Part shown: positions 1 through 24,929 of the stretch, in pieces
Numbering within the stretch: the stretch's first letter is position 1
Layout: every line of letters starts with the position of its first letter
Source: a virus
Virus record (IMG/VR): IMGVR_UViG_3300043466_004237
Coordinates: 1-24,929 of that record
Direction: 5' to 3' (one strand)
DNA: 24,929 bases
Program-made: the position numbers and the translations under genes
Notes under the pieces: model-generated
Told to the model about the DNA's origin: nothing
The model's database searches: none
Seen by the model: only the letters and a program-made list of their open reading frames with translations

Positions 1-132
1 ACCCAAAATTTTAAATGGTTTTCCTTCAGATAATTCCAATACCAGGTTCCAATCATTATCAAAATAATGAAATGGTGGAAGTGTTATTATTTCTTCTTGT
101 TCTTTTAATAGTTTTCGGATTAAAGTTTTCAT
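1..132 (-). CDS. LRR-like paralogue, partial (runs off left edge)
   Basis: Only the first 44 residues are visible. They are the family's invariant N-terminus: a leader MKTLIRKLLKE, then QEEIITLPPFHYFDNDW, WNLVLELSEGKPFKILG, after which the window ends. The ATG (130-132, minus) overlaps the TAA of the preceding copy by one base (TAATG), so the two are probably translationally coupled. The repeat part is expected to lie to the left of the window. Function is unknown; see the copy at 132-545. Confidence 0.85.
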   Translation of the reverse strand, partial: MKTLIRKLLKEQEEIITLPPFHYFDNDWNLVLELSEGKPFKILG

Positions 133-545
133 TATAAATAAATATTACCACCAACATTAACTTGTTGTCTTATTTCATTTTTTGTCATTGTCTTAGCTAT
201 TGGTGTATTTTGTAAATCCAAATAACCACCAACTTCGGTTAAATTTCCAATTGATTGGAGATTTTTGCACCCAAATAAATCCAAATAACCACCAACTTCG
301 GTTAACTTTCCAAGTGATTGGAGATTTTTACAAATATATAAATACAAACCACCACCAACAGCATAACAATTGCCAAGAGTTGTTATTTCTTGATTATTAC
401 TTAAATTAACATCACCCAAAATCTTAAATGGTTTTCCTTCACTTAATTCCAATACCAGATTCCAATCATTATCGAAATAATGAAATGGTGGAAGAGTTAT
501 TATTTCTTCTTGTTCTTGCAATATTTTTCTGATTAAAGTTTTCAT
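132..545 (-). CDS. LRR-like repeat protein with packaging-type leader (short copy, 3 repeats)
   Basis: A 137-residue member of a paralogous family with twelve copies in this window. Three parts are visible: (1) a conserved N-terminus of about 47 residues, starting with the leader MKTLIRKILQE and containing DNDWNLVLELSEGKPFKILG; (2) three repeats of about 20-21 residues of the type LQSLGNLTEVGGYLDLYNCKN, a leucine-rich solenoid-like pattern (LxLxxCxxLxSLGxLTxVGG); (3) a conserved C-terminus with TPIAKTMT and EIRQQVNVGGNIYL. It lies upstream of, and overlaps by one base, the next copy at 1-132. No catalytic motif is visible. A binding or recognition role is a guess from the repeat type only. 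The start is fixed by the leader shared with all copies. Confidence 0.85.
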   Translation of the reverse strand: MKTLIRKILQEQEEIITLPPFHYFDNDWNLVLELSEGKPFKILGDVNLSNNQEITTLGNCYAVGGGLYLYICKNLQSLGKLTEVGGYLDLFGCKNLQSIGNLTEVGGYLDLQNTPIAKTMTKNEIRQQVNVGGNIYL

Positions 546-905: not shown

Positions 906-1196
906 ATGCTTGATTATATGGATGAAAATAATAAAAATCCTCAAAAAAAAATTGAGGATGCTTCAACACCAGCTTTAAACAATTTTAGTCGAGATTTAAC
1001 AAAGTTAGCTCAAGAAGGTAAATTAGACCCTGTTATTGGTAGGGATAAAGAAATTGTCAGGATTGCACAAATTTTATCAAGAAGAAAGAAAAATAATCCT
1101 GTTTTAGTGGGTGAGCCAGGCTGTTTATTGGGTGATATGATAATTGAGGTTGAAAAAATTTCTAACGATAATTCGCATAAAATTGAAACTATGTAG
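906..1196 (+). CDS. ClpC-type ATPase N-terminal fragment fused to a split-intein N-half
   Basis: A 96-residue product. Residues 1-72 are the start of a ClpC-type AAA+ chaperone, with [39 protein letters not shown] and VLVGEPG, which is the beginning of the Walker A loop of ATPase domain 1. The usual Clp N-terminal repeat domain is missing. The sequence then switches inside the P-loop to an intein start ([14 protein letters not shown]) and ends at a TAG after 24 intein residues. The remainder of the P-loop, CGKT, is encoded downstream at 1956. Splicing in trans would give GEPG-CGKT. An alternative ATG lies at 918; I prefer 906. An upstream TTG at 882 is unlikely. The product can be active only if joined to the protein encoded at 1557-3758. 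Confidence 0.85.
1122..1193 (+). other. Split-intein N-half (24 residues, Cys1)
   Basis: Intein block A: Cys1 followed by [13 protein letters not shown], the CxxGD signature of intein N-termini. It is only 24 residues long and lacks block B (the T/S-x-x-H motif), which is instead in the C-half. This is the layout of the atypical split inteins, such as the phage terminase TerL intein with a roughly 25-residue N-part, and not of the usual DnaE-type split of about 100 + 35 residues. Read on from its last residues (KIETM) into the C-half start (KITIKEFFEMIK), the two join into a normal-looking intein beta-hairpin. Confidence 0.8.
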
Positions 1197-1198
1197 TA

Positions 1199-1560
1199 TT
1201 TATAGGTAATGGCATTTACCAACGCCAGAATACCCCAAGATATTTTAATGGAATACGATTTAAAAGCATTGGTGAATTTGACATTGCAAAATTTTTGGTT
1301 GAAAACAATATAACATTTATATATGAAAAGAATTATCTAAATTCTAAGTTTAAATTTGATTTTTATTTGCCTAATCAAAACATTTATATTAAATATTTTG
1401 GTATGTTAGATAAAAAAACCATAATAGTTTTGATTCAATACTAAAAAAATATTATGATAAAATGAATGAAAAAATTTTATTTTGTCAAAAAAATAACTTA
1501 AATTTAATTCATGAAACAAACTACGTTGAATTAATTAAAAAACTAAACAGTATTATATGA
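1199..1560 (+). pseudogene. Decayed EDxHD/PD-(D/E)XK-type homing endonuclease gene between the intein halves
   Basis: Two frames together encode one recognisable endonuclease-like sequence. From 1199: FIGNGIYQRQNTPRYFNG, then KSIGEFDIAKFLVENNITF, YEKNYLNSKFKFDFYLP and NQNIYIKYFGMLDKK. At an A-run near 1411-1417 the frame must shift by one base to continue NHNSFDSILKKYYDKMNEK, ILFCQKNNLNLIHETNYVEL and IKKLNSII, ending at TGA 1558-1560. The pattern GE...IA.FL...I.F.YE....F.FDFYLP..NIYI.YFG resembles Vsr-like/EDxHD endonucleases found between intein halves in fractured genes. It has no in-frame ATG at its 5' end, a one-base frame break, and Lys where I recall an acidic residue in relatives (NIYIEYFG). 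It is probably inactive. Its stop overlaps the ATG of the next gene (ATGA). Confidence 0.7.
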
Positions 1561-1955
1561 AAATAACAATAAAAGAATTTTTTGAAATGATTAAAATGGA
1601 TGGTGGTACTTTTAAAATAAAAACACCATCAGGATTTAAATTGGTTGGTAATTTATACCAAAAAAAGAATAAAAATTGTATCAGAATAAAATTATCAAAT
1701 GGTTTGGTATTATCTGGTTCTGATGAACACTTTGTTGAAGTTGCAGAAACCTCAGTAAATCCATTTGTACAATTTGAAAATAATTCTTATTGGATTGCTT
1801 TAGGTAATATAACTGAAGGTGAATTGATTTGGTGTGAAACTAATGAATTAGCTGAAGTTATTGAATGGGAAGAAATTGGTATTCACGACACATACGATTT
1901 AGAGGTTCTTGATAATGAAAGAAAATACATATCGAATGGAATTGTTTCACATAAT
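1557..1955 (+). other. Split-intein C-half (133 residues, ends His-Asn, Cys+1)
   Basis: Begins MKITIKEFFEMIKMDGG. It contains FKIKTPSGFKLVGNLYQKKN, a block-B-like NGLVLSGSDEHFVEV (S-x-x-H), then the C-terminal blocks: HDTYDLEVLDNERKYI (block F) and SNGIVSHN (block G, penultimate His and terminal Asn). The next codon, TGC at 1956, is the extein Cys+1. There is no endonuclease domain inside. The ATG sits exactly where the endonuclease frame stops (ATGA overlap), so the three genes could be translated as a coupled unit. Confidence 0.85.
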
Positions 1956-3758
1956 TGCGGAAAAACTTCTGTTATTGAGGGACTTGCAATTAAAATAAAT
2001 GAAGGTGATGTCCCAAGAACCTTGGTAGATAAACGAATTTTATCATTGGATATAACTTCAGTTGTTGCGGGAACAAAATATCGTGGTCAGTTTGAAGAAA
2101 GGATGAAAGTTATTATTGAAGAACTTGAAACAAACCCCGATGTTATTTTGTTTATTGATGAAATCCACACAATTGTGGGTGCGGGAAATTCTTCGGGGTC
2201 TTTGGATGTTTCAAACATTCTAAAACCCGCACTATCACGTGGTGATATTCAATGTATTGGTGCAACAACCATTGATGAATACAGAAAAAGTTTTGAAAAG
2301 GACGGTGCACTTGAAAGAAGATTTCAAAAAGTTATTATTGATAGTGCCTCAAAAGATGAAACAATTGAAATTCTGACAAACATCAAAGAAAAGTATGAAA
2401 GTTTTCACGGGGTGAATTACTCCGATGAAGCAATTAAACTTTTTGTTGATTTGGCTGATAGATATATTACCGACAGGGAATTTCCCGATAAAGCAATTGA
2501 CATTATGGATGAGGTTGGCTCAAGAGCACAGCTAAATTTAAAAATTCCCGAAATAATTGAAGAGCTAAAGCTACAAGCCAAAGAAATTAAAGAGAAGAAA
2601 GTTGAAATTGTAAGGGTTCAAAAATATGAAGAAGCGGCTGATTTACGAGATAAAGAACGGAAAATTCTCCAAAAACTTGAAGATGAAAAGAAAAAACATC
2701 ATGAGGCAATAAAAAATAAAGAACGTGTAAATGTTAGTATTGACTTGGTTTATGATGTTGTATCATCAATAACAAAAGTTCCAATAAGCAAACTATCCGT
2801 TGAAGATACCAAATCTTTAACGCAGCTTGAATCAACACTAAATGAAAAGATTATTGGGCAATCAGATGCAGTTAAAAGAATTGCAAAGTCAATCAAAAGA
2901 AATAGAATTGGTATAAAAGACCCTAACAGACCTATTGGTTCATATATTTTTTTAGGTTCAACTGGTGTAGGAAAAACATTTTTAGCTAAAGAATTAGCTA
3001 AAGAAGTTTTTGGTTCTGAAGACGCTTTAGTTAGAATCGATATGAGTGAGTATCAAGAAAAAATTAGTCTATCTCGATTAATAGGTTCAGCTCCTGGTTA
3101 TGTTGGATATGAAGAAGGTGGACAATTAACTGAAAAAATTAAAAATAAACCATATTGTGTATTGTTATTTGATGAAATTGAAAAAGCTCATAAAGAAATT
3201 TTTCAACTATTACTTCAAGTTTTAGACGAAGGACATTTAACAGATAGTTTAGGTAGAAAAATTAATTTTAAAAATTGCATAATTATTATGACTTCAAACA
3301 TAGGAGTTAGAAAACTTCAAGATTTTGGAAATGGTATAGGTTTTGGAAAAAATAATAATTCATATGCTCTTGAAGAACACAGGAAAGATATTTTACAATC
3401 AGAACTTAAAAAGTTTTTTGCACCAGAATTTTTAAATCGTATTGATGATGTTATTGTTTTTAATAAATTAAATAAAGAAGATATTTTTAAAATTGTAAAA
3501 ATTGAACTATTAAAGCTTGAAAAAAGAATCCTGGACTTAAATTATAAGATATCATTCAATGAGTCTGTTATTAATTTAATTAGTAAAATTGGATTTGATG
3601 ATACATATGGGGCAAGACCTATAAAAAGAGCAATTCAAGATAAATTAGAAGACTTTATTTCTGAAAATATTTTATTAAATAACATTAAAAATAAATCAAA
3701 CTACGAGATTTTTGTTGATGATAGTGAAATAATCAATTTTAGGAAAATTAAGAATTAA
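1557..3758 (+). CDS. Split-intein C-half fused to ClpC-type AAA+ ATPase (rest of both ATPase domains)
   Basis: A 733-residue protein. Residues 1-133 are the intein C-half, ending in VSHN. Residue 134 is the +1 Cys completing Walker A as CGKT. ATPase domain 1 then shows Walker B VILFIDEIHT and arginine-finger region ALERRFQ. About residues 350-385 hold a UVR-like coiled segment (QKYEEAADLRDKERKILQKL), typical of ClpC. ATPase domain 2 has Walker A GSTGVGKT (about 467), Walker B VLLFDEIEKAH, sensor region TSNIG, and FLNRIDDVIVF. An IGF tripeptide in GNGIGFGKN (about 595) sits where ClpA/ClpC/ClpX carry the ClpP-docking loop, so use of host ClpP is plausible. With the fragment at 906-1196 it would form a full ClpC core lacking the Clp N-domain. 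Codon use differs between domains 1 and 2. It converges on the next gene with a 4-base overlap. Confidence 0.9.
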   Translation: MKITIKEFFEMIKMDGGTFKIKTPSGFKLVGNLYQKKNKNCIRIKLSNGLVLSGSDEHFVEVAETSVNPFVQFENNSYWIALGNITEGELIWCETNELAEVIEWEEIGIHDTYDLEVLDNERKYISNGIVSHNCGKTSVIEGLAIKINEGDVPRTLVDKRILSLDITSVVAGTKYRGQFEERMKVIIEELETNPDVILFIDEIHTIVGAGNSSGSLDVSNILKPALSRGDIQCIGATTIDEYRKSFEKDGALERRFQKVIIDSASKDETIEILTNIKEKYESFHGVNYSDEAIKLFVDLADRYITDREFPDKAIDIMDEVGSRAQLNLKIPEIIEELKLQAKEIKEKKVEIVRVQKYEEAADLRDKERKILQKLEDEKKKHHEAIKNKERVNVSIDLVYDVVSSITKVPISKLSVEDTKSLTQLESTLNEKIIGQSDAVKRIAKSIKRNRIGIKDPNRPIGSYIFLGSTGVGKTFLAKELAKEVFGSEDALVRIDMSEYQEKISLSRLIGSAPGYVGYEEGGQLTEKIKNKPYCVLLFDEIEKAHKEIFQLLLQVLDEGHLTDSLGRKINFKNCIIIMTSNIGVRKLQDFGNGIGFGKNNNSYALEEHRKDILQSELKKFFAPEFLNRIDDVIVFNKLNKEDIFKIVKIELLKLEKRILDLNYKISFNESVINLISKIGFDDTYGARPIKRAIQDKLEDFISENILLNNIKNKSNYEIFVDDSEIINFRKIKN

Positions 3759-5492: not shown

Positions 5493-6493
5493 AGAAAATT
5501 ATAACATTAAGTGAAAGCGAATTTAAATCTTTTTTGATGGGGGTTATTAAAGAATACGAAGAAAAAACAACTCCAGGTAAATATTATGCATTAGGCGGTT
5601 TATATTTTTATGTTAACGATGGTAAAATGTGTTTAGCTGAAAAAAAAGATGGTGAAATTATTCCAAATTATAATATAGATTTTCCATCAACAAAAGAACT
5701 TTCGGCTGAGTGGACTGAACAAACTAAAGAGTTTGATGACCCAAATGTTAAAGGTAAAGAATTAAAATTTTTAGGATATAATAAAAAAATGCAAAACGCA
5801 ATGAAATATGGTGAAGAAATTCATAAAAAAAATGAACCAATTTCAAATTTTGGGGCTATTAAACCAATAGTATTTTATTCACAAAGATATGAAGCCCCAA
5901 CATTAGGCGGTTTTGTTGTCGGAACAAATTATCCAGATTCTGTTGAAGGAAATATGGTAAATATTGAAGGTAAAAAAGGTAATAAAATATTTTTCCAACA
6001 ATCAGCTTTTAATGGTAAATATGGAATCTCTCTTGAAGTCTCAATGTATGGCCAACCTATTAATTTAGAAGATTTTGGAATTAAACAAAACATGTTAAAA
6101 TTGCCAAAAACATATAATGTTGGAGATTTTTTTGAAGAAAATAGTGCAACCCCAAAATTTTTAGAAAAAGCATCGTTTTTAGAAGGTATTAAAGATTTTG
6201 TTAAAAATGGTGGTAGAATAAATAAAGTTACTATTGAAGCTTCAACTTCTAAAATACCTGCAGGGCATGTTGATAATAATGTAGCAAAAAACAAATGGAA
6301 GGAGTTAAATGAATATAATGATACTGTTTATGGTAATAACGATGACGGTACAGGAAACCTTCAATTGTGTAAACATAAAGCATATAATACTTATAATGCT
6401 TTAAAAAAAGTTATCCCAGAATTGGCGAATGCTCCATATATTTTAAAGGCTGCAGGTCCTATGGGGGAATATGTTCATGTTAAATTCGAATGA
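5489..6493 (+). CDS. Hypothetical protein with packaging-type leader and OmpA-like C-terminal region
   Basis: A 334-residue protein starting MKKIITLSESEFKSFLMG, then VIKE|YEEKTTPGKYYALG. The leader type (LSESEF...VIKE) recurs on unrelated phage proteins. The middle, from about residue 25, reads as a beta-rich region (YYALGGLYFYVNDGKMCLAE). The C-terminal 120 residues contain FVKNGGRINKVTIEASTSKI, then GNLQLCKHKAYNTYNALKKV. Their order and spacing recall OmpA-like peptidoglycan-associating domains (I.IEG.TS...N..L...RA..V...L), but key Arg and Asp residues are not clear. The gene is coupled to the membrane-protein gene upstream (ATGA) and overlaps the convergent sigma gene by 19 bases. Function is uncertain. 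Confidence 0.75.
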   Translation: MKKIITLSESEFKSFLMGVIKEYEEKTTPGKYYALGGLYFYVNDGKMCLAEKKDGEIIPNYNIDFPSTKELSAEWTEQTKEFDDPNVKGKELKFLGYNKKMQNAMKYGEEIHKKNEPISNFGAIKPIVFYSQRYEAPTLGGFVVGTNYPDSVEGNMVNIEGKKGNKIFFQQSAFNGKYGISLEVSMYGQPINLEDFGIKQNMLKLPKTYNVGDFFEENSATPKFLEKASFLEGIKDFVKNGGRINKVTIEASTSKIPAGHVDNNVAKNKWKELNEYNDTVYGNNDDGTGNLQLCKHKAYNTYNALKKVIPELANAPYILKAAGPMGEYVHVKFE

Positions 6494-7002
6494 TTCATTA
6501 ATTTTTTTAAGAGTTTTCTACATTTAAAAAGTTGAGAGCGACAAGTTCCTTCATCAATGTTTAAAACTTTTGCAATTTCTTTATTCTCAAAACCTTCAAT
6601 AACATTTAAATATAAAATTTTCTTATACCCCTTTGGAAGACGTTTAATTAAGTTAATTATCTCATTAAACTCTAAAAAATCATATGTTGGATATTCAAAT
6701 GTTAATGATTCAAAATTTTCAAGATATACTTCTTTTTTGTTACTTGTTTTATTCAATTTATCAATTGAAGTATTTTTTGCAATTTTTTTAATCCAACCAT
6801 CAAAAGAACCTTTTCTTGAAAATTTTTCAATATTCATAAATACTTTAATAAATGTTTCAGTTGTAGCATCTTGAGCATCTTCAAAGTTTTTAGAATATTT
6901 TAAACAAACTTTAAGTATCTTTTCACTATACTTTTCATATAGTATGTTTTGATATTTTGGAATTTTTAATTTACAATTTTCAATTAATTCTTGTTCTGTC
7001 AT
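6475..7002 (-). CDS. ECF-type RNA polymerase sigma factor
   Basis: A 175-residue protein with the two-domain layout of ECF sigma factors. Sigma region 2: YEKYSEKILKVCLKYSKNFE, DAQDATTETFIKVFMNIEKF and SFDGWIKKIAKNTSIDKLNK (core binding and -10 recognition). Region 4: LPKGYKKILYLNVIEGFENK, EIAKVLNIDEGTCRSQLFKC and RKLLKKLM (helix-turn-helix for -35 recognition). It would redirect host RNA polymerase to a set of phage promoters. I start it at the ATG 7000-7002; a TTG at 7017 also exists. A TATATTTG box 12 bases upstream suggests its own promoter, although it also lies last in the minus-strand run of LRR-like genes, 21 bases behind them. ECF factors are common in Bacteroidota genomes but unusual in phages. 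Confidence 0.85.
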   Translation of the reverse strand: MTEQELIENCKLKIPKYQNILYEKYSEKILKVCLKYSKNFEDAQDATTETFIKVFMNIEKFSRKGSFDGWIKKIAKNTSIDKLNKTSNKKEVYLENFESLTFEYPTYDFLEFNEIINLIKRLPKGYKKILYLNVIEGFENKEIAKVLNIDEGTCRSQLFKCRKLLKKLMNHSNLT

Positions 7003-7014
7003 ATTTTTTTGATG

Positions 7015-7022
7015 CAAATATA
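7015..7022 (-). promoter_or_regulatory. TATATTTG (Bacteroidota-type -7 box) before the sigma gene
   Basis: Minus-strand TATATTTG matches the Bacteroidota -7 consensus TAnnTTTG and sits 12 bases before the sigma-factor ATG, between the truncated LRR copy and the sigma gene. I do not see a convincing upstream -33 TTG. Transcription would start close to the start codon. Confidence 0.45.
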
Positions 7023-7023
7023 C

Positions 7024-7305
7024 TTAATAATTTTGAGTATTTATAATACCTCCAACTTCAGTTAAATTTCCAAGAGATTCAAGATTTTCACACTTATATA
7101 AATACAAATGACCACCAACAGCATAACAATTGCCAAGAGTTGTTATTTCTTGATTAAACCTTAAATCAACATCACCCAAGATTTTAAATGGTTTTCCTTC
7201 AGATAATTCCAATACCAGGTTCCAATCGTATTCGAAATATTCAAATGGTGGAAGTGTTATTATTTCTTCTTGTTCTTTTAATAGTTTTCTAATTAATTTT
7301 TTCAT
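7024..7305 (-). CDS. LRR-like paralogue, truncated after two repeats
   Basis: A 93-residue protein. It has the full conserved N-terminus (MKKLIRKLLKE leader, FEYDWNLVLELSEGKPFKIL) and the first repeats (NCYAVGGHLYLYKCENLESL, GNLTEVGG), but then ends GIINTQNY and stops. The usual tail (TPIAKTMT...EIRQQVNVGG) is missing. I see no continuation in another frame before the sigma gene, so this is a deletion and not a frameshift. It is the terminal copy of the array, coupled to the preceding copy by TAATG. It may be a remnant. Confidence 0.75.
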   Translation of the reverse strand: MKKLIRKLLKEQEEIITLPPFEYFEYDWNLVLELSEGKPFKILGDVDLRFNQEITTLGNCYAVGGHLYLYKCENLESLGNLTEVGGIINTQNY

Positions 7306-7781
7306 TATAAATAAATTTTACCACCAACATTAACTTGTTGTCTTATTTCATCTTCTGTCATTGTATCAGCTATTGGTGTATAACTCAATCCCAAATAACC
7401 ACCAACCTTGGTTAAATTTCCAAGTGATTCAAGATTTTCGCAAAAATATAAATCCAAATCACCACCAACTTTGGTTAAATTTCCAAGGGATTGGAGATTT
7501 GTGCAATTATGTAAACTTAAAGCACTACCAACTTCGGTTAAATTTCCAAGTGATTGGAGATTTGTACAATTATATAAATCCAAAAAACCACCAACAGCAT
7601 AACAATTGCCAAGAGTTGTTATTTCTTGCTTATCAATTAAATCAACATCACCTAAGATTTTAAATGGTTTCCCTTCACTTAATTCCAATACCAGATTCCA
7701 ATCATTATCAAAATAATGAAATGGTGGAAGGGTTATTATTTCTTCTTGTTCTTGCAATATTTTTCGGATTAAGTTTTTCAT
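7305..7781 (-). CDS. LRR-like paralogue (4 repeats)
   Basis: A 158-residue protein with leader MKNLIRKILQE, the conserved DNDWNLVLELSEGKPFKILG block, four repeats (LDLYNCTN, LSLHNCTN, LDLYFCEN, LGLSYT ends) and the tail TPIADTMTEDEIRQQVNVGG. The start is the ATG of MKNLIRK. Upstream in-frame Met codons lie inside the preceding copy's C-terminal extension and are rejected. The unusual repeat unit VGSALSL is shared with the copy at 10561-10977. One base separates it from the preceding copy's stop. It carries the packaging-type leader; function unknown. Confidence 0.85.
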   Translation of the reverse strand: MKNLIRKILQEQEEIITLPPFHYFDNDWNLVLELSEGKPFKILGDVDLIDKQEITTLGNCYAVGGFLDLYNCTNLQSLGNLTEVGSALSLHNCTNLQSLGNLTKVGGDLDLYFCENLESLGNLTKVGGYLGLSYTPIADTMTEDEIRQQVNVGGKIYL

Positions 7782-7782
7782 A

Positions 7783-8340
7783 TTAAAATTTAACATAGAA
7801 TTCAAAATAAATATCACCATTAACATTAACTTGTTGTCTTATTTCATATTCTGTCATTGTCTTAGCTATTGGTGTTTCCCAAATATATAAATCATTACCA
7901 ACTTCAGTTAAATTTCCAAGTGATTGGAGATTTTTACATTTTTGTAAATTTATCCAACCACCAACTTCTGTTAAATTTCCAAGTGATTGGTGATTTTTGC
8001 AATTATATAAATCCAACCAACCACCAACTTCGGTTAAATTTCCAAGTGATTGGAGATTTTCGCAATAAAATAAATCCAAATAATCACCAACTTCTGTTAA
8101 ATTTCCAAGGGATTCAAGATTTATGCAATTATATAAATTCAAGTAACCAGCAACAGCATAACAATTGCCAAGAGTTGTTATTTCTTGATTATTACTTAAA
8201 TCAACATTACCCATAATCTTAAATGGTTTTCCTTCACTTAATTCCAATACCAGATTCCAATCATTATCAAAATAATGAAATGGTGGAAGGGTTATTATTT
8301 CTTCTTGTTCTTGCAATATTTTTCTGATTAAGTTTTTCAT
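7783..8340 (-). CDS. LRR-like paralogue (5 repeats, EFYVKF tail)
   Basis: A 185-residue protein. After the conserved N-terminus (here KIMGNVDLSNNQEITTLGNC) come five repeats ending YNCIN, FYCEN, YNCKN, QKCKN and WET, then TPIAKTMTEYEIRQQVNVNG and an extension DIYFEFYVKF instead of the usual IYL end. Both the extension and the following start region are nearly identical to those of the next copy upstream (8342-8896), showing recent duplication of the whole unit. One base separates stop and start. The start follows the shared leader MKNLIRKILQE. Confidence 0.85.
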   Translation of the reverse strand: MKNLIRKILQEQEEIITLPPFHYFDNDWNLVLELSEGKPFKIMGNVDLSNNQEITTLGNCYAVAGYLNLYNCINLESLGNLTEVGDYLDLFYCENLQSLGNLTEVGGWLDLYNCKNHQSLGNLTEVGGWINLQKCKNLQSLGNLTEVGNDLYIWETPIAKTMTEYEIRQQVNVNGDIYFEFYVKF

Positions 8341-8341
8341 A

Positions 8342-8896
8342 TTAAAATTTAACATAGAATTCAAAATAAATATCACCATTAACATTAACTTGTTGTCTTA
8401 TTTCATATTCTGTCATGGTATTAGCTATTGGTGTTTTTGCTAAATTCAAATAACCGCCAACTTCGATTAAATTTCCAAGTGATTGGATATTTGTCTTTCT
8501 CAAATCCAAATCACCACCAACTTTGGTTAAATTTCCAAGTGATTGGTGATTTTTGCAATTATATAAATCCAACCAACCACCAACTTCGGTTAAATTTCCA
8601 AGTGATTGTAGATTTGTACAATTTTTTAAATCCAACCAACCACCAACTTCTGTTAAATTTCCAAGGGATTCAAGATTTATGCAATTATATAAATTCAAGT
8701 AACCAGCAACAGCATAACAATTGCCAAGAGTTGTTATTTCTTGATTATTACTTAAATCAACATTACCTATAATCTTAAATGGTTTTCCTTCACTTAATTC
8801 CAATACCAGATTCCAATCATTATCAAAATAATGAAATGGTGGAAGTGTTATTATTTCTTCTTGTTCTTTTAATATTTTTCTGATTAAGTTTTTCAT
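8342..8896 (-). CDS. LRR-like paralogue (5 repeats, EFYVKF tail)
   Basis: A 184-residue protein, nearly identical to the copy at 7783-8340 over the N-terminus, first repeats (YLNLYNCINLESLGNLTEVG) and C-terminal extension (VNVNGDIYFEFYVKF), but with different middle repeats: KNCTN, YNCKN, RKTN, AKT. The difference is confined to repeat units, as expected if units are swapped or gained by recombination. Leader MKNLIRKILKE. Its ATG overlaps the stop of the copy at 8893-9492 (ATGA). Confidence 0.85.
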   Translation of the reverse strand: MKNLIRKILKEQEEIITLPPFHYFDNDWNLVLELSEGKPFKIIGNVDLSNNQEITTLGNCYAVAGYLNLYNCINLESLGNLTEVGGWLDLKNCTNLQSLGNLTEVGGWLDLYNCKNHQSLGNLTKVGGDLDLRKTNIQSLGNLIEVGGYLNLAKTPIANTMTEYEIRQQVNVNGDIYFEFYVKF

Positions 8897-9492
8897 TGAA
8901 AAAAAATATTACCACCAACATTAACTTGTTGTCTTATTTTATTTTCTGTCATTGTATGTGCTATTGGTGTATTTTCTACATCAAAAAAACTACCAACATA
9001 TTTTAAATTACCTAAAGATTTTATTTGACATCGACTGACATCCAAATATCCACCAACTTCGGTTAAATTTCCAAGGGATTGGAGATTTTGGCAAGCTATT
9101 AAATTCAAATAGCCGCCAACAGAATACAAGTTCCCCAAAGTTTTTAATTCATAATTATCAGATAATTTAACTTTATCATTAACTTTTCTTAAATTACCAA
9201 GTGATTTAATTTTTGTAAATCCTAAATATAGCTCACCACCAACTTCAGTTAAATTTCCAAGTGATTTAAAATTATTACAATTCCAAATATTTAAATAACC
9301 ACCAACAGCATAACAATTGCCAAGAGTTGTTATTTCTTGATTACTCATTATGAAAACGTCACCCAAAATTTTAAATGGTTTACCTTCAGACGCTTCCAAT
9401 ACCAGATTCCAATCATTATCAAAATGTATAATAGGCGGAAGAGTTATTATTTCTTCTTGTTCTTGCAATATTTTTCTGATTAAAGTTTTCAT
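8893..9492 (-). CDS. LRR-like paralogue (6 repeats, most divergent)
   Basis: A 199-residue protein and the most divergent of the array. It has PPIIHFDNDWNLVLEASEGK in place of PPFHYF, and repeats with basic or irregular units: IKSLGNLRKVNDKVKLSDNY, ELKTLGNLYSVGGYLNLIAC, YLDVSRCQIKSLGNLKYVGS. It contains a second cap-like unit (ELKTLGNLYSVGG) resembling the first unit (EITTLGNCYAVGG), hinting at an ancient internal duplication. It ends TPIAHTMTENKIRQQVNVGG NIFFQ. Leader MKTLIRKILQE; coupled on both sides by overlaps. Confidence 0.85.
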   Translation of the reverse strand: MKTLIRKILQEQEEIITLPPIIHFDNDWNLVLEASEGKPFKILGDVFIMSNQEITTLGNCYAVGGYLNIWNCNNFKSLGNLTEVGGELYLGFTKIKSLGNLRKVNDKVKLSDNYELKTLGNLYSVGGYLNLIACQNLQSLGNLTEVGGYLDVSRCQIKSLGNLKYVGSFFDVENTPIAHTMTENKIRQQVNVGGNIFFQ

Positions 9493-10028
9493 TATAAATA
9501 AATATCACCACCAACATTAACTTGTTGTCTTATTTTATTTTCTGTCATTGTCTTAGCTATTGGTGTATTTCTTAAATCCAAACTACCACCAACTTTGGTT
9601 AAATTTCCAAGTGATTGGAGATTTTGGCAATGATATAAATCCAACCAATCACCAACTTCAGTTAAATTTCCAAGTGATTCAAGATTTTCGCAAAAATATA
9701 AATCCAAATAACCACCAACAACAGTTAAACTTTCAAGGGATTGGATATTTGTCTCTCTTAAATCCAAATCACCACCAACTTCTGTTAAATTTCCAAGGGA
9801 TTGTATATTTTTACAATTATATAAATCCAAATCACCACCAACAGCATAACAATTGCCAAGAGTTGTTATTTCTTGATTATGGTCTAAAAAAACATCACCC
9901 AAAATTTTAAATGGTTTACCTTCAGACACTTCCAATACCAGATTCCAATCATTATCAAAATGTATAATAGGAGGAAGTGTTATTATTTCTTCTTGTTCTT
10001 TTAATAGTTTTCGGATTAATTTTTTCAT
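9492..10028 (-). CDS. LRR-like paralogue (5 repeats)
   Basis: A 178-residue protein with leader MKKLIRKLLKE, the PPIIHFDNDWNLVLEVSEGK variant, and five repeats (YNCKN, RETN, YFCEN, YHCQN, RNT). It includes the irregular unit IQSLESLTVVGGYLDL and the unit VGDWLDLYHCQN, also present at 10028-10564 and, on the other strand, at 20364-20903. Tail TPIAKTMTENKIRQQVNVGG. TAATG overlaps occur on both sides. Confidence 0.85.
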   Translation of the reverse strand: MKKLIRKLLKEQEEIITLPPIIHFDNDWNLVLEVSEGKPFKILGDVFLDHNQEITTLGNCYAVGGDLDLYNCKNIQSLGNLTEVGGDLDLRETNIQSLESLTVVGGYLDLYFCENLESLGNLTEVGDWLDLYHCQNLQSLGNLTKVGGSLDLRNTPIAKTMTENKIRQQVNVGGDIYL

Positions 10029-10564
10029 TATAAATAAATATTACCACCAACATTAACTTGTTGTCTTATTTTATTTTCTGTCATTGTCTTAGCTATTGGT
10101 GTATTTCTTAAACCCAAACTACCACTAACTTCGGTTAAATTTCCAAGTGATTCGAGATTTTGGCAATGATATAAATCCAACCAATCACCAACTTCAGTTA
10201 AATTTCCAAGTGATTGTAGATTTGTACAATTTTCTAAATCCAACCAACCACCAACTTCTGTTAAATTTCCAAGTGATTGTATATTTGTATTTTTTAAATC
10301 CAACCAACCACCAACTTCAGTTAAATTTCCAAGTGATTTAAAATTATTACAATTCCAAATATTTAAATAACCAGCAACAGCATAACAATTGCCAAGAGTT
10401 GTTATTTCTTGATTAAACCTTAAATCAACATTACCCAAAATTTTAAATGGTTTTCCTTCAGACACTTCCAATACCAGATTCCAATCATTATCAAAATGTA
10501 TAATAGGCGGAAGAGTTATTATTTCTTCTTGTTCTTGCAATATTTTTCTGATTAAGTTTTTCAT
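10028..10564 (-). CDS. LRR-like paralogue (5 repeats)
   Basis: A 178-residue protein. First repeats AGYLNIWNCNNFKSLGNLTE are shared with the copy at 8893, the fourth unit VGDWLDLYHCQN with the copy at 9492, and the last unit VSGSLGLRNTPIAKTMT with the plus-strand copy at 20364. This patchwork is the clearest case of unit exchange between copies and between clusters. Leader MKNLIRKILQE. Its ATG overlaps the stop of the first array gene (ATGA at 10561-10564). Confidence 0.85.
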   Translation of the reverse strand: MKNLIRKILQEQEEIITLPPIIHFDNDWNLVLEVSEGKPFKILGNVDLRFNQEITTLGNCYAVAGYLNIWNCNNFKSLGNLTEVGGWLDLKNTNIQSLGNLTEVGGWLDLENCTNLQSLGNLTEVGDWLDLYHCQNLESLGNLTEVSGSLGLRNTPIAKTMTENKIRQQVNVGGNIYL

Positions 10565-10977
10565 TGAAAATAAATATTACCACGAACATTAACTTGTTGT
10601 CTTATTTCATCTTTTGTCATTGTCTGTACTATTTGTGTATTTCTTAAATCCAACCAACCACCAACTTTGGTTAAATTTCCAAGTGATTCAAGATTTTTGC
10701 AATTATATAAACTTAAAGCACTACCAACTTCGGTTAACTTTCCAAGTGATTGGAGATTTGTGCAATTATGTAAATTCAAGTAACCACCAACTTCAGTTAA
10801 ATTTCCAAGGGTTATTATTTCTTGCTTATCAATTAAATCAACATCACCCAAAATTTTAAATGGTTTTCCTTCACTTAATTCCAATACCAGGTTCCAATCG
10901 TAGTCGAAATATTCAAATGGAGGAAGTGTTATTATTTCTTCTTGTTCTTGCAATATTTTTCTGATTAAAGTTTTCAT
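10561..10977 (-). CDS. LRR-like paralogue (3 repeats, fused first unit), first gene of the array
   Basis: A 138-residue protein with leader MKTLIRKILQE. The normal first unit LGNCYAVGG is missing; the sequence reads EIITLGNLTEVGGYLNLHNC, so a deletion has joined the cap unit to a later unit. It ends NTQIVQTMTKDEIRQQVNVR GNIYFQ. The start at 10977 lies 65 bases inside the 3' end of the cupin-like gene, in another frame. A TATATTTG sequence lies three bases before the ATG, but it is also cupin coding sequence and may be chance. Confidence 0.85.
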   Translation of the reverse strand: MKTLIRKILQEQEEIITLPPFEYFDYDWNLVLELSEGKPFKILGDVDLIDKQEIITLGNLTEVGGYLNLHNCTNLQSLGKLTEVGSALSLYNCKNLESLGNLTKVGGWLDLRNTQIVQTMTKDEIRQQVNVRGNIYFQ

Positions 10978-11245
10978 TAGCAAATATAATTTTAATTTTT
11001 AAATTATTAGAACCTTTTATTACTCTATGCCATAAATATTTTGGTATTTCAATAACTTGGTTTTTAATTAGTGAAATTGGCAATTGATTATCCAATTGAA
11101 TTTTCCAATCAGTATCATGTAATGGAATAATAAATCTATTCTCTTCGTCTTGATGCCATTTTAATTCATTTTCATCAACATTTTGTGAAAATATTCTAAT
11201 TCTAAAATTATCACCAAATATTTGTTCAAAAGGTAAGCTATCCAT
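10913..11245 (-). CDS. Cupin-like protein, C-terminus overprinted by an LRR-like gene
   Basis: A 110-residue protein. ELKWHQDEENRFIIPLHDTD, WKIQLDNQLPISLIKNQVIE and IPKYLWHRVIKGSNNLKIKI fit a small cupin beta-barrel of a type seen in phages (WHxDxExR.. DWxxQxDxxxP...IP...xHRVIKG). His and acidic residues in WHQDEE and the His of WHRVIKG could bind a metal. The natural end is probably near KIIFANEN. The last 20 or so residues (NFNQKNIARTRRNNNTSSI) are simply the LRR-like gene's leader read in another frame, so the array seems to have been inserted here. One base follows the upstream gene's stop. Confidence 0.65.
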   Translation of the reverse strand: MDSLPFEQIFGDNFRIRIFSQNVDENELKWHQDEENRFIIPLHDTDWKIQLDNQLPISLIKNQVIEIPKYLWHRVIKGSNNLKIKIIFANENFNQKNIARTRRNNNTSSI

Positions 11246-20363: not shown

Positions 20364-20903
20364 ATGAAAAAATTAATCCGAAAAATATTAAAAGAGCAAG
20401 AAGAAATAATAACTCTTCCACCATTTGAATATTTCGAATACGATTGGAATCTGGTATTGGAATTATCTGAAGGAAAACCATTTAAAATTTTGGGTAATGT
20501 TATTTTAGGCGGTGATAAAAAAATAACAACCCTTGGTAATTGTTATGCTGTTGGTGGTAATTTAAATTTATTTGAGTGCCGAAATCTCGAATCACTTGGA
20601 AAGTTAACCAAAGTTGGTGGTCATTTGTATTTAAATTGGTGCCAAAATCTCGAATCACTTGGAAATTTAACTGAAGTTGGTGATTGGTTGGATTTATATC
20701 ATTGCCAAAATCTCCAATCACTTGGAAATTTAACTAAGGTTGGTGGTTATTTGAATTTAGATGATTGCAAAAATCTCCAATCCCTTGGAAATTTAACCGA
20801 AGTTAGTGGTAGTTTGGGTTTAAGAAATACACCAATAGCTAAGACAATGACAAAAAATGAAATAAGACAACAAGTTAATGTTGATGGTAAAATTTATTTA
20901 TAA
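20364..20903 (+). CDS. LRR-like paralogue on the plus strand (5 repeats)
   Basis: A 179-residue protein with leader MKKLIRKILKE and the conserved FEYDWNLVLELSEGKPFKIL block; then VILGGDKKITTLGNCYAVGG, five repeats (FECRN, NWCQN, YHCQN, DDCKN, RNT) and TPIAKTMTKNEIRQQVNVDG. The units VGDWLDLYHCQN and VSGSLGLRNT are shared with the minus-strand array 10 kb away, so clusters exchange units across strands. It starts 16 bases after the previous gene and is coupled to the next by TAATG. Confidence 0.85.
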   Translation: MKKLIRKILKEQEEIITLPPFEYFEYDWNLVLELSEGKPFKILGNVILGGDKKITTLGNCYAVGGNLNLFECRNLESLGKLTKVGGHLYLNWCQNLESLGNLTEVGDWLDLYHCQNLQSLGNLTKVGGYLNLDDCKNLQSLGNLTEVSGSLGLRNTPIAKTMTKNEIRQQVNVDGKIYL

Positions 20904-21562
20904 TGAAAAAATTAATCCGAAAACTATTAAAAGAACAAGAAGAAATAATAACACTTCCACCATTTCATTATTTTGATAATGATTGGAATCTGGTATTGGA
21001 ATTAAGTGAAGGAAAACCATTTAAGATTTTGGGTGATGTTGATTTAGGCGGTGATAAAAAAATAACAACCCTTGGTAATTGTTATGCTGTTGGTGGTTTT
21101 TTGGATTTATATAATTGTACAAATCTCCAATCACTTGGAAATTTAACTGAAGTTGGTGGTTGGTTGGATTTAAGAAATACAAATCTTGAATCATTTGGAA
21201 ATTTAACAGAAGTTGGTGGTAATTTGGATTTAAGAAATACAAATCTCGAATCACTTGGAAATTTAACTGAAGTTGGTGGTGATTTGGATTTATTTGGGTG
21301 CAAAAATCTTGAATCACTTGGAAATTTAACCGAAGTTGGTGGTTATTTGAATTTATATGATTGCAAAAATTTCCAAGTGATTGGGAATTTAACAGAAGTT
21401 GGTAGTAGTTTAAGTTTATATAATTGCCAAAATCTCGAATCACTTGGAAATTTAACCAAAGTTGGTGGTTGGTTGGATTTAAGAAATACACAAATAGCTA
21501 AGACAATGACAGAAGATGAAATAAGACAACAAGTTAATGTTGGTATTAAAATTTATATGTGA
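20903..21562 (+). CDS. LRR-like paralogue on the plus strand (7 repeats, longest copy)
   Basis: A 219-residue protein with leader MKKLIRKLLKE, the DNDWNLVLELSEGKPFKILG block and seven repeats. It includes two consecutive near-identical units (NTNLESFGNLTEVGGNLDLR, NTNLESLGNLTEVGGDLDL), a sign of recent unit duplication, and an odd unit FQVIGNLTEVGSSLSLYNCQ. Tail NTQIAKTMTEDEIRQQVNVG. It is the longest copy in the window, against 137-199 for the other intact ones. It directly precedes the terminase gene. Confidence 0.85.
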   Translation: MKKLIRKLLKEQEEIITLPPFHYFDNDWNLVLELSEGKPFKILGDVDLGGDKKITTLGNCYAVGGFLDLYNCTNLQSLGNLTEVGGWLDLRNTNLESFGNLTEVGGNLDLRNTNLESLGNLTEVGGDLDLFGCKNLESLGNLTEVGGYLNLYDCKNFQVIGNLTEVGSSLSLYNCQNLESLGNLTKVGGWLDLRNTQIAKTMTEDEIRQQVNVGIKIYM

Positions 21563-23412: not shown

Positions 23413-24929
23413 ATGAGTAATCAAAATACTAATCTAACAGTGTGGCAAAGACTTGCACAAGCTTTTGGGCCAAATTCATTATTAAATCAAGACTATCCAG
23501 TATATAAATTTGATAAAAAAGAATTATTAAAAACTACAAATAAGCAAGAATATGAACTTGCAAAATTACAAGCACAACAATCTTTATATTTATCAACCCA
23601 ATGGGCAAAAGTTGAAAATAATCTATATACACAAGGTGTATACTTTGAACCTACCAGATTAGCATCATATTATGATTACGAAAGTATGGAATATTCAATT
23701 GCGGGTGACACTAAAATAGCAACCCCCGATGGTTTTATTACCATTGAAGAACTTGCGAAAAAAGGTAGAGACCATGAATTTATAACATATGCTTATGACC
23801 ATAACCTTGGAAAGGTGGTTCCTGCGTTAGCAAGAAATGCACACTACACACGAGATGAGATGACATATAAAATTACTTTTGATGACGGGTCTCATATAAT
23901 TGCAACTTATGGCCATAGATTTTTAAAACGTGATGGTGTTTTCTGTGAAGTTGAAAATTTAAAACCAGGTGATTCTATGATGCCTTTTTATAGGAAATCA
24001 TTTTATGATAATCAAAATTATAATTGGGTTTATGTCTGCAATAAAAATGAAGGTCATCATGGTTGGGTATCTGAACATAAATTAATTGCTGAATGGTATT
24101 ATGATACTAAAGTTGGCGAAGATGAAGAAGTTTATCATATAGATTTTAATGGTAAAAATAATTTGCCTGAAAATTTAAAAATATGGAATATTTCTGAACA
24201 TAGAGCATATCATGCAAGGTTAAATAATGAAAAATTGTGGGCTAATCCTGAATATAGACGCAAGATGCTTGAAACTTCTAAAAGAACTAACAAACATCAA
24301 TGGAATGGCGTAAGAAGTGGGAGAAATAACCCCGCATATATTCAATTAAGTTTTAATATGTTAGTTGAAACAGCAAAAAGTGAGAGAACGCTTGAAAAAA
24401 CTGCAAAGGCTTTAAATGTTTCAATTAAAAAAATCCAAAATGAATTAAAATTTAATGGTTTTAAAAATTGGGATACTTTTTTGGATGTTTATAAAATATC
24501 AAAATATGTACCAATCTCCGAGAACTATAAATCAATTAATTTTGATGTAATTCCTTGGGATTTATTAGTTGAGGTTGCTAAAAAAGAAAGATTAATCAAA
24601 AATGTTTGTAAAAAATTAAATATAACCCATGGAAAGTTACGTTCAACATTAAGACAAGGCGGTTACAACAATTGGACAGTTTTTACTCAAGCATATGGTA
24701 TTGAAATGGGTAAAACTGGAAGAAAGAAAGTTGAAGCAGTTGAGGAAGAATCTGTTGTAAATCACAAGATAGTGTCAATTGAACCTTATGGTGTTGTACC
24801 TGTCTATGATTTAACCGTACCAGGCTATAAAAACTTTGCTACAGATACCATCTTTTCACATAATACTCCTGAAATATCAACAGCCTTAGATATTTATGCT
24901 GAAGAATCAACTACAGCTGACCAAGATGG
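23413..24929 (+). CDS. Portal protein (T4 gp20-like), intein-containing, 3' end beyond window
   Basis: The visible 505 residues are an N-extein of 94 residues (MSNQNTNLTVWQRLAQAFGP, YDYESMEY), a 390-residue intein, and the start of the C-extein, TPEISTALDIYAEESTTADQ. Joining gives MEY-TPEISTALDIYAEEST, the highly conserved YDEME..PEI..ALDIYADE motif of T4-type portal proteins. The portal forms the dodecameric ring at the head vertex through which DNA is pumped and to which the tail joins. Its position after terL fits. The protein must splice to be functional. Confidence 0.9.
   Translation, partial: MSNQNTNLTVWQRLAQAFGPNSLLNQDYPVYKFDKKELLKTTNKQEYELAKLQAQQSLYLSTQWAKVENNLYTQGVYFEPTRLASYYDYESMEYSIAGDTKIATPDGFITIEELAKKGRDHEFITYAYDHNLGKVVPALARNAHYTRDEMTYKITFDDGSHIIATYGHRFLKRDGVFCEVENLKPGDSMMPFYRKSFYDNQNYNWVYVCNKNEGHHGWVSEHKLIAEWYYDTKVGEDEEVYHIDFNGKNNLPENLKIWNISEHRAYHARLNNEKLWANPEYRRKMLETSKRTNKHQWNGVRSGRNNPAYIQLSFNMLVETAKSERTLEKTAKALNVSIKKIQNELKFNGFKNWDTFLDVYKISKYVPISENYKSINFDVIPWDLLVEVAKKERLIKNVCKKLNITHGKLRSTLRQGGYNNWTVFTQAYGIEMGKTGRKKVEAVEEESVVNHKIVSIEPYGVVPVYDLTVPGYKNFATDTIFSHNTPEISTALDIYAEESTTADQD
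23695..24864 (+). other. Intein with HNH homing endonuclease in the portal gene (Ser1, Asn390, Thr+1)
   Basis: A 390-residue intein. Block A SIAGDTKIATPDGFITIEEL with Ser as residue 1; block B GSHIIATYGHRFLKRDG; block F VPVYDLTVPGYKNFAT; block G TIFSHN; extein +1 is Thr. About residues 120-175 hold an HNH endonuclease: SEHKLIAEWYYDTKVGEDE, VYHIDFNGKNNLPENLKIWN and ISEHRAYHARLN. Two related DNA-binding-type repeats of about 45 residues follow (about 221-265 and 289-335), sharing LVExAKxER...LN...L...G..NW..F...Y. The intein is in frame with no stop, so it appears intact and possibly mobile. Confidence 0.9.

What the first reader, a model, noticed from the sequence alone, without database searches (positions are those of the whole stretch)
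1199..1560. Decaying endonuclease gene caught between intein halves
The segment between the halves reads as a Vsr-like/EDxHD endonuclease only if a one-base frame change is allowed at an A-run (about 1411-1417). It lacks an ATG and has Lys where relatives usually carry an acidic residue. Its last codons still overlap the next start as ATGA. This looks like the late stage of the homing cycle: endonuclease lost while the split intein persists because ClpC needs it.
Basis: partly seen in the sequence, partly recalled or inferred. Interest (0 to 1): 0.6.

Follow-up and report, generated by a model that had tools for sequence, protein, structure and literature searches.

The report
Dead homing endonuclease inside split ClpC intein
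Between the two halves of a naturally split intein in a phage ClpC gene lies the leftover tail of a selfish DNA-cutting enzyme that is now broken in at least four ways, and related phages carry intact, broken, shrunken and fully deleted versions at the same spot, so the decay half of the selfish element's life cycle can be seen at a single site.

Summary
Eleven related IMG/VR phage loci carry a complete or contig-cut endonuclease gene (388-393 aa when complete) between the same two ClpC intein halves. The window keeps only its C-terminal ~110-aa nuclease domain (1229-1560). About 845 bp, the N-terminal ~278 aa and the start codon, are gone. The frame breaks at the A-run 1412-1418, and a glutamate kept in all 13 aligned relatives is Lys (1391-1393). 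One site shows every stage: intact, frameshift only, 360-, ~240-, 121- and 71-bp remnants, and 6-29-bp gaps with no endonuclease. Intein-free ClpC alleles are common. Window and L016 inteins are sisters while their ClpC genes reject sisterhood (p-AU 2e-37), so the intein moved between ClpC lineages before both lost the endonuclease. The C-intein stays under strong purifying selection (dN/dS ~0.04). A sequencing error in the A-run cannot rescue the gene. This is a known kind (atypically split intein with intervening Vsr-fold endonuclease; homing-cycle decay) in a host gene I found undescribed, with an unusually complete decay series.

The parts
906..1121 (+). ClpC-like (Hsp100) N-extein, ATG at 906 or 918, ending ...VLVGEPG (first half of the D1 Walker A motif)
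   Evidence: ORF list and sequence; intein-free homologues continue GEPG-CGKTA
1122..1196 (+). 24-aa N-intein [24 protein letters not shown] plus stop TAG (1194-1196); atypically short N-half
   Evidence: sequence; same 24-aa N-intein in 15 of the 16 related loci, 26 aa in the other
1197..1228 (+). TATTTAT motif and hairpin (stem 1205-1212 / 1219-1226) that in relatives lies between the N-intein stop and the endonuclease ATG; 6 of 8 consensus pairs still formed here
   Evidence: consensus fold with covariation, score 0.392 against 0.144 shuffled; nearly the same sequence in L249 before an intact endonuclease start
1229..1560 (+). endonuclease remnant: C-terminal nuclease domain only, no start codon, frame break at 1412-1418, stop TGA 1558-1560 overlapping the C-intein ATG
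   Evidence: alignment with intact copies
1391..1393 (+). AAA = Lys where all 13 aligned relatives have the conserved Glu of the nuclease core (I-E-Y/F-x-G)
   Evidence: alignment A8; aligned (weakly) with Glu65 of T7 endonuclease I, which reads Lys in 1FZR
1412..1418 (+). A7 run at which the reading frame of the remnant changes
   Evidence: three-frame translation
1557..1955 (+). 133-aa C-intein ending in His-Asn, followed by +1 Cys
   Evidence: profile match to VidaL, gp41-1 and CatC inteins; NCBIfam intein_Cterm; 15-member alignment
1956..3758 (+). ClpC-like C-extein (CGKTSVIEGL... to stop), 600 aa
   Evidence: Pfam AAA_2, AAA_lid_9, ClpB_D2-small; PHROG 4871 ATP-dependent protease

Best explanation
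An atypically split intein (24-aa N-half, 133-aa C-half) sits in the first Walker A motif of a phage ClpC-like ATPase. It spread by homing driven by a ~390-aa endonuclease (N-terminal region of unknown fold, C-terminal Vsr-fold nuclease) encoded between the halves, cutting intein-free ClpC. In the window this gene is dead: an internal deletion removed the start and the first ~278 aa, a frame change hit the A-run, and a core Glu became Lys. The intein halves are kept, probably because ClpC is made only by trans-splicing. Shown: anatomy, lesions, homologues, decay series, horizontal movement, selection on the intein. Inferred: cleavage of the empty allele by intact relatives, trans-splicing, the order of lesions, and why the intein is retained.
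For: Intact endonuclease at the same site in related phages. Remnant aligns with the C-terminal nuclease domain only. Glu to Lys at a position fixed in 13 others. 5-7 breaches of otherwise invariant nuclease positions in the window against 0-4 in other copies. Graded remnants and complete losses. At least 6 state changes on the intein tree. L025 (no endonuclease) and L042 (intact) share 287/290 bases of C-intein. Dozens of intein-free alleles, 13 presence/absence changes on the ClpC tree. Window and L016 inteins are sisters (95/85) but ClpC rejects this, p-AU 2e-37. dN/dS of the C-intein ~0.04 for window against L016, both without functional endonuclease. Nuclease domain matches I-Bth0305I and Vsr structures.
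Against: No reads are available, so the frame change itself could be an assembly or base-call error. Neither splicing nor cleavage was tested. dS is saturated, so the selection estimates are rough and relaxed selection on the remnant is only suggested by numbers.
Confidence: 0.92

Rival explanations
1. Intact or nearly intact endonuclease gene: the frame change is a homopolymer error in a metagenome assembly.
For: The break lies in an A7 run. L031, otherwise full length and with no breach of conserved sites, breaks frame in a G-run, which may be such an error.
Against: Even without the frame break the window lacks ~278 N-terminal residues, a start codon and the conserved Glu. A homopolymer error cannot explain an 845-bp shortfall.
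Confidence: 0.03
2. A short nuclease-domain protein is made from the remnant by ribosomal or transcriptional slippage at the A-run and still works, for example as a nicking or DNA-binding fragment.
For: The remnant coincides with a complete structural domain (residues ~278-388 of the model) and is stop-free on both sides of the break.
Against: No ATG at the head, conserved Glu replaced by Lys, more conserved-site breaches than any other copy, and sister lineages delete the region completely.
Confidence: 0.03
3. The endonuclease-free mini split intein is ancestral, and endonucleases invaded the gap between the halves later, so short gaps are not losses.
For: Endonuclease-free loci are widespread on the intein tree, whose deep forks are poorly supported.
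Against: 71-, 121-, ~240- and 360-bp stretches homologous to the 3' end of the intact gene show loss directly. L025 and L042 differ by 3 of 290 C-intein bases yet differ in the endonuclease.
Confidence: 0.05

Closest known systems
Fractured genes with split inteins and a free-standing endonuclease between the halves (Dassa et al. 2009; from memory, paper not held)
   Same: Gene broken in two by a split intein, with an endonuclease gene between the intein halves in intact relatives.
   Different: Host gene is a ClpC-like Hsp100 ATPase, for which I found no report in the held papers; here the endonuclease is a remnant and other stages of loss are visible at the same site.
[quoted passage not shown]
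   Same: Very short N-half, long C-half; the C-intein profile aligns with VidaL residues 25-141.
   Different: Class shown by sequence only; 24-aa N-half, inserted in a P-loop of ClpC; splicing untested.
I-Bth0305I and the EDxHD homing endonucleases (PMC3943268)
   Same: C-terminal Vsr-fold nuclease domain behind a longer N-terminal region; best structural match 3R3P, probability 0.99, TM 0.63 on the target length.
   Different: Intact ClpC-site copies read IEYFG without the following His seen in annotated EDxHD relatives (IEYDGxxH); the window copy has also lost the Glu.
T7 endonuclease I (phage Holliday-junction nuclease)
   Same: Weak profile match placing the conserved E, E, D, E of the nuclease domain on those of T7 endonuclease I; the chain in 1FZR reads Lys at the position that is Lys in the window.
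   Different: E-values 0.24-0.95, so a lead and not proof of relationship.

Membership tests
Atypically split intein | N-half of roughly 15-30 aa encoded apart from a C-half of more than 100 aa | tested here: met
   24 and 133 aa on separate ORFs
Atypically split intein | Splice-junction and block residues: Cys1, block-B His, C-terminal His-Asn, +1 Cys | tested here: met
   C1 in the N-half; H58, H132, N133 invariant in 15 homologues; CGKT follows
Atypically split intein | Sequence relationship to characterised members | tested here: met
   Profile hits VidaL 6VGV E 1.5e-6, gp41-1 1.7e-7
Atypically split intein | Protein trans-splicing activity | not testable with these tools
   needs expression of both halves
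Vsr-fold / EDxHD homing endonuclease | Vsr-like nuclease fold | tested here: met
   AlphaFold2 model of the intact relative L216; Foldseek top hit I-Bth0305I catalytic domain, also Vsr 1VSR and 1CW0. Tested on the relative, not on the remnant
Vsr-fold / EDxHD homing endonuclease | Conserved acidic core and His of annotated EDxHD members | tested here: not met
   Intact ClpC-site copies keep E, E, D, E but not the His after IExxG; the window has Lys for the last Glu. The exact letters of the motif rest on memory
Functional homing endonuclease gene (window copy) | Start codon, single open frame, full length, intact core residues | tested here: not met
Homing (mobile) intein | Empty sites in related alleles and horizontal movement | tested here: met
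   Intein-free ClpC in 90 contigs considered for the tree; intein/ClpC tree conflict p-AU 2e-37
Homing (mobile) intein | Site-specific cleavage of the empty allele by the intact endonuclease | not testable with these tools
   needs a cleavage assay

The most novel reading that the evidence does not exclude
Splitting of an intein by an intervening endonuclease gene acts as a one-way ratchet: after the endonuclease is lost, even when only 6-29 bp separate the halves, they are never re-fused into a cis-intein, so the host gene stays permanently broken in two. No re-fused intein was seen at this site among the loci examined.
Probability: 0.35. Interest if true: 0.65.

Novelty: new member of a known kind. 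Interest (0 to 1): 0.5.

Why it matters
Homing-cycle models predict that endonucleases decay after a site is fixed while the splicing element lingers. Here one insertion site in one phage gene shows each step from empty site through intact element and successive remnants to an endonuclease-free split intein, with repeated losses and clear horizontal movement. That makes loss rates, the order of lesions and the question whether split inteins can ever re-fuse testable by comparison. It also adds a phage ClpC-like ATPase as a fractured gene and a set of natural short-N split inteins of possible practical use.

Tried and rejected
Searching viral contigs with the remnant itself found nothing; the C-intein alignment worked instead. 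Pfam and NCBIfam have no model for the endonuclease. Rfam has no match for the hairpin. No relative of the C-intein in genome contigs; named phages hold only distant split inteins (TerL, UvsX). Full-length endonuclease profile against PDB sequences gave nothing meaningful. dN/dS of the remnant is uninformative because dS is saturated. Considered and rejected: intact gene with a sequencing error; active slippage product; later invasion of an ancestral mini-intein. T7 endonuclease I literature on the Lys variant was not held.

Full report
What is there. The window is a fragment of an uncultured phage: its only genome record is this 24,929-base IMG/VR contig, and its large terminase is 25-28% identical to that of Flavobacterium phage immuto and other T4-like phages. 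ORF 882-1196 encodes the ClpC N-extein and a 24-aa N-intein. ORF 1557-3758 encodes a 133-aa C-intein followed by the rest of a ClpC/ClpB-type ATPase. The break lies in the first Walker A motif, GEPG^CGKTS. The C-intein profile matches the solved inteins gp41-1, VidaL and CatC, and begins at VidaL residue 25, so this is an atypically split intein.

Checking the observation. Reading the 360 bases between the halves in three frames confirms the stop-free frame up to the A7 run at 1412-1418, homology continuing in another frame to TGA at 1558-1560, no ATG at the head, and the ATGA overlap with the C-intein. The two pieces hit phage endonucleases by tblastn (best 4e-8, Geobacillus virus E3; one hit, Klebsiella phage Muenster, is annotated EDxHD).

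What the intact gene looks like. Searching viral contigs with the C-intein, then with alignments of it, of the endonuclease and with an N-intein DNA pattern gave 20 distinct related loci besides the window at the same ClpC site. Complete endonuclease genes (388-393 aa) lie between the halves in L017, L018, L024, L027, L032, L035, L042 and L216, and a full-length one in the more distant +1 Thr lineage L242; L178 and L249 show intact 5' parts at contig ends. Against these the window keeps only the last ~110 residues: about 278 N-terminal residues and the start are gone, and the gap is 360 bp instead of 1202-1214. It is a hairpin that in relatives stands between the N-intein stop and the endonuclease ATG, with covariation well above shuffled and slid controls (0.392 against 0.144 and at most 0.17); 6 of its 8 pairs still form in the window.

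The nuclease. An AlphaFold2 model of the L216 protein (mean pLDDT 81, C-terminal domain mostly near 90, pTM 0.35) has a C-terminal domain whose best PDB match is the catalytic domain of I-Bth0305I (probability 0.99, TM 0.63 on the target length), with Vsr also listed; the E-values are weak (0.18), so the match rests on the probability and on the agreement with annotation. The window remnant is this domain. In a 14-sequence alignment the Glu of I-E-x-x-G is present in every sequence except the window, which has Lys. A weak profile match puts this Glu on Glu65 of T7 endonuclease I, and the chain in 1FZR reads Lys there; from memory that is an inactive mutant. Across the domain the window breaches 5-7 of 28-32 otherwise invariant positions, against 0-4 (mean about 1) for other copies. 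L031, with only a frame break in a G-run, breaches none, so it is either very recently dead or an error.

A decay series at one site. Gap between N-intein stop and C-intein ATG: intact 1202-1214 bp; L031 1214 bp but frame broken; window 360 bp; L268 (identical in three metagenomes) about 240 bp with an 18-aa N-intein; L021 121 bp; L022 71 bp; and 6-29 bp without recognisable endonuclease in L016, L023, L025, L030 and L039. The retained remnants are all from the 3' end of the gene, next to the C-intein start. On the intein tree functional against non-functional endonuclease needs at least 6 changes; L268 lies outside that tree. L025 and L042 differ in 3 of 290 C-intein bases, yet one has the whole gene and the other none.

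Movement. A scan for uninterrupted GEPGCGKT found 120 contigs; many are ClpC of the same type, 62-70% identical to the window exteins and without intein. On a ClpC tree intein presence changes 13 times. The inteins of window and L016 are sisters (95/85), but their ClpC exteins reject this (log-likelihood difference 117, p-AU 2e-37). L021 and L022 are 99% identical in the C-intein and about 88% in flanking ClpC (Fisher 2e-13). So the element moved between ClpC lineages, and window and L016 then lost the endonuclease, probably independently: synonymous divergence between their inteins is near saturation, while the window remnant is still about as similar to L216 as intact copies are to each other.

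Why the intein stays. The C-intein of window and L016, neither with a functional endonuclease, shows dN 0.08 against dS about 2, strong purifying selection although dS is near saturation. Since the intein interrupts the P-loop, loss of splicing would cost the ATPase. That step is inference.

Verdict. The element is a new member of a known kind, with an unusually complete natural series of homing-cycle decay.

Noticed in passing
window 1197-1228; L017, L018, L024, L027, L031, L032, L035, L042: A TATTTAT motif and a covarying hairpin stand between the N-intein stop and the endonuclease start; possibly it controls endonuclease translation, as hairpins do for some T4 endonucleases (from memory).
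   Followed up: partly
L021 about 6010-8506; L027 about 5900-8534: A second atypically split intein with its own open endonuclease gene interrupts the second (D2) P-loop of the same ClpC gene (GVGK^T), so these ClpC genes are broken in three; in L021 the D1 endonuclease is dead while the D2 one is open.
   Followed up: partly
L280 819-4694 (contig of L235): In a distant ClpC split-intein locus (+1 Thr) two endonuclease genes of 613 and 617 aa, one on each strand, lie between the halves, which are about 3.9 kb apart.
   Followed up: partly
L231, L232, L233, L234, L236: Related short-N split inteins with endonuclease-like genes lie in other phage P-loop ATPases (AAA proteins, PhoH-like, recombination nuclease-like).
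   Followed up: no
window 23413-24927: The gene after the terminase carries a contiguous intein (NCBIfam intein N- and C-terminal regions) with a large insert that looks like an endonuclease domain.
   Followed up: partly
window 132-545 (-), 7305-10983 (-), 20364-21562 (+): A family of about nine similar small genes (MKxLIRKILxEQEEIITLPP...) with leucine-rich-type repeats (Pfam Recep_L_domain in one), in tandem arrays; function unclear, possibly diversifying.
   Followed up: no
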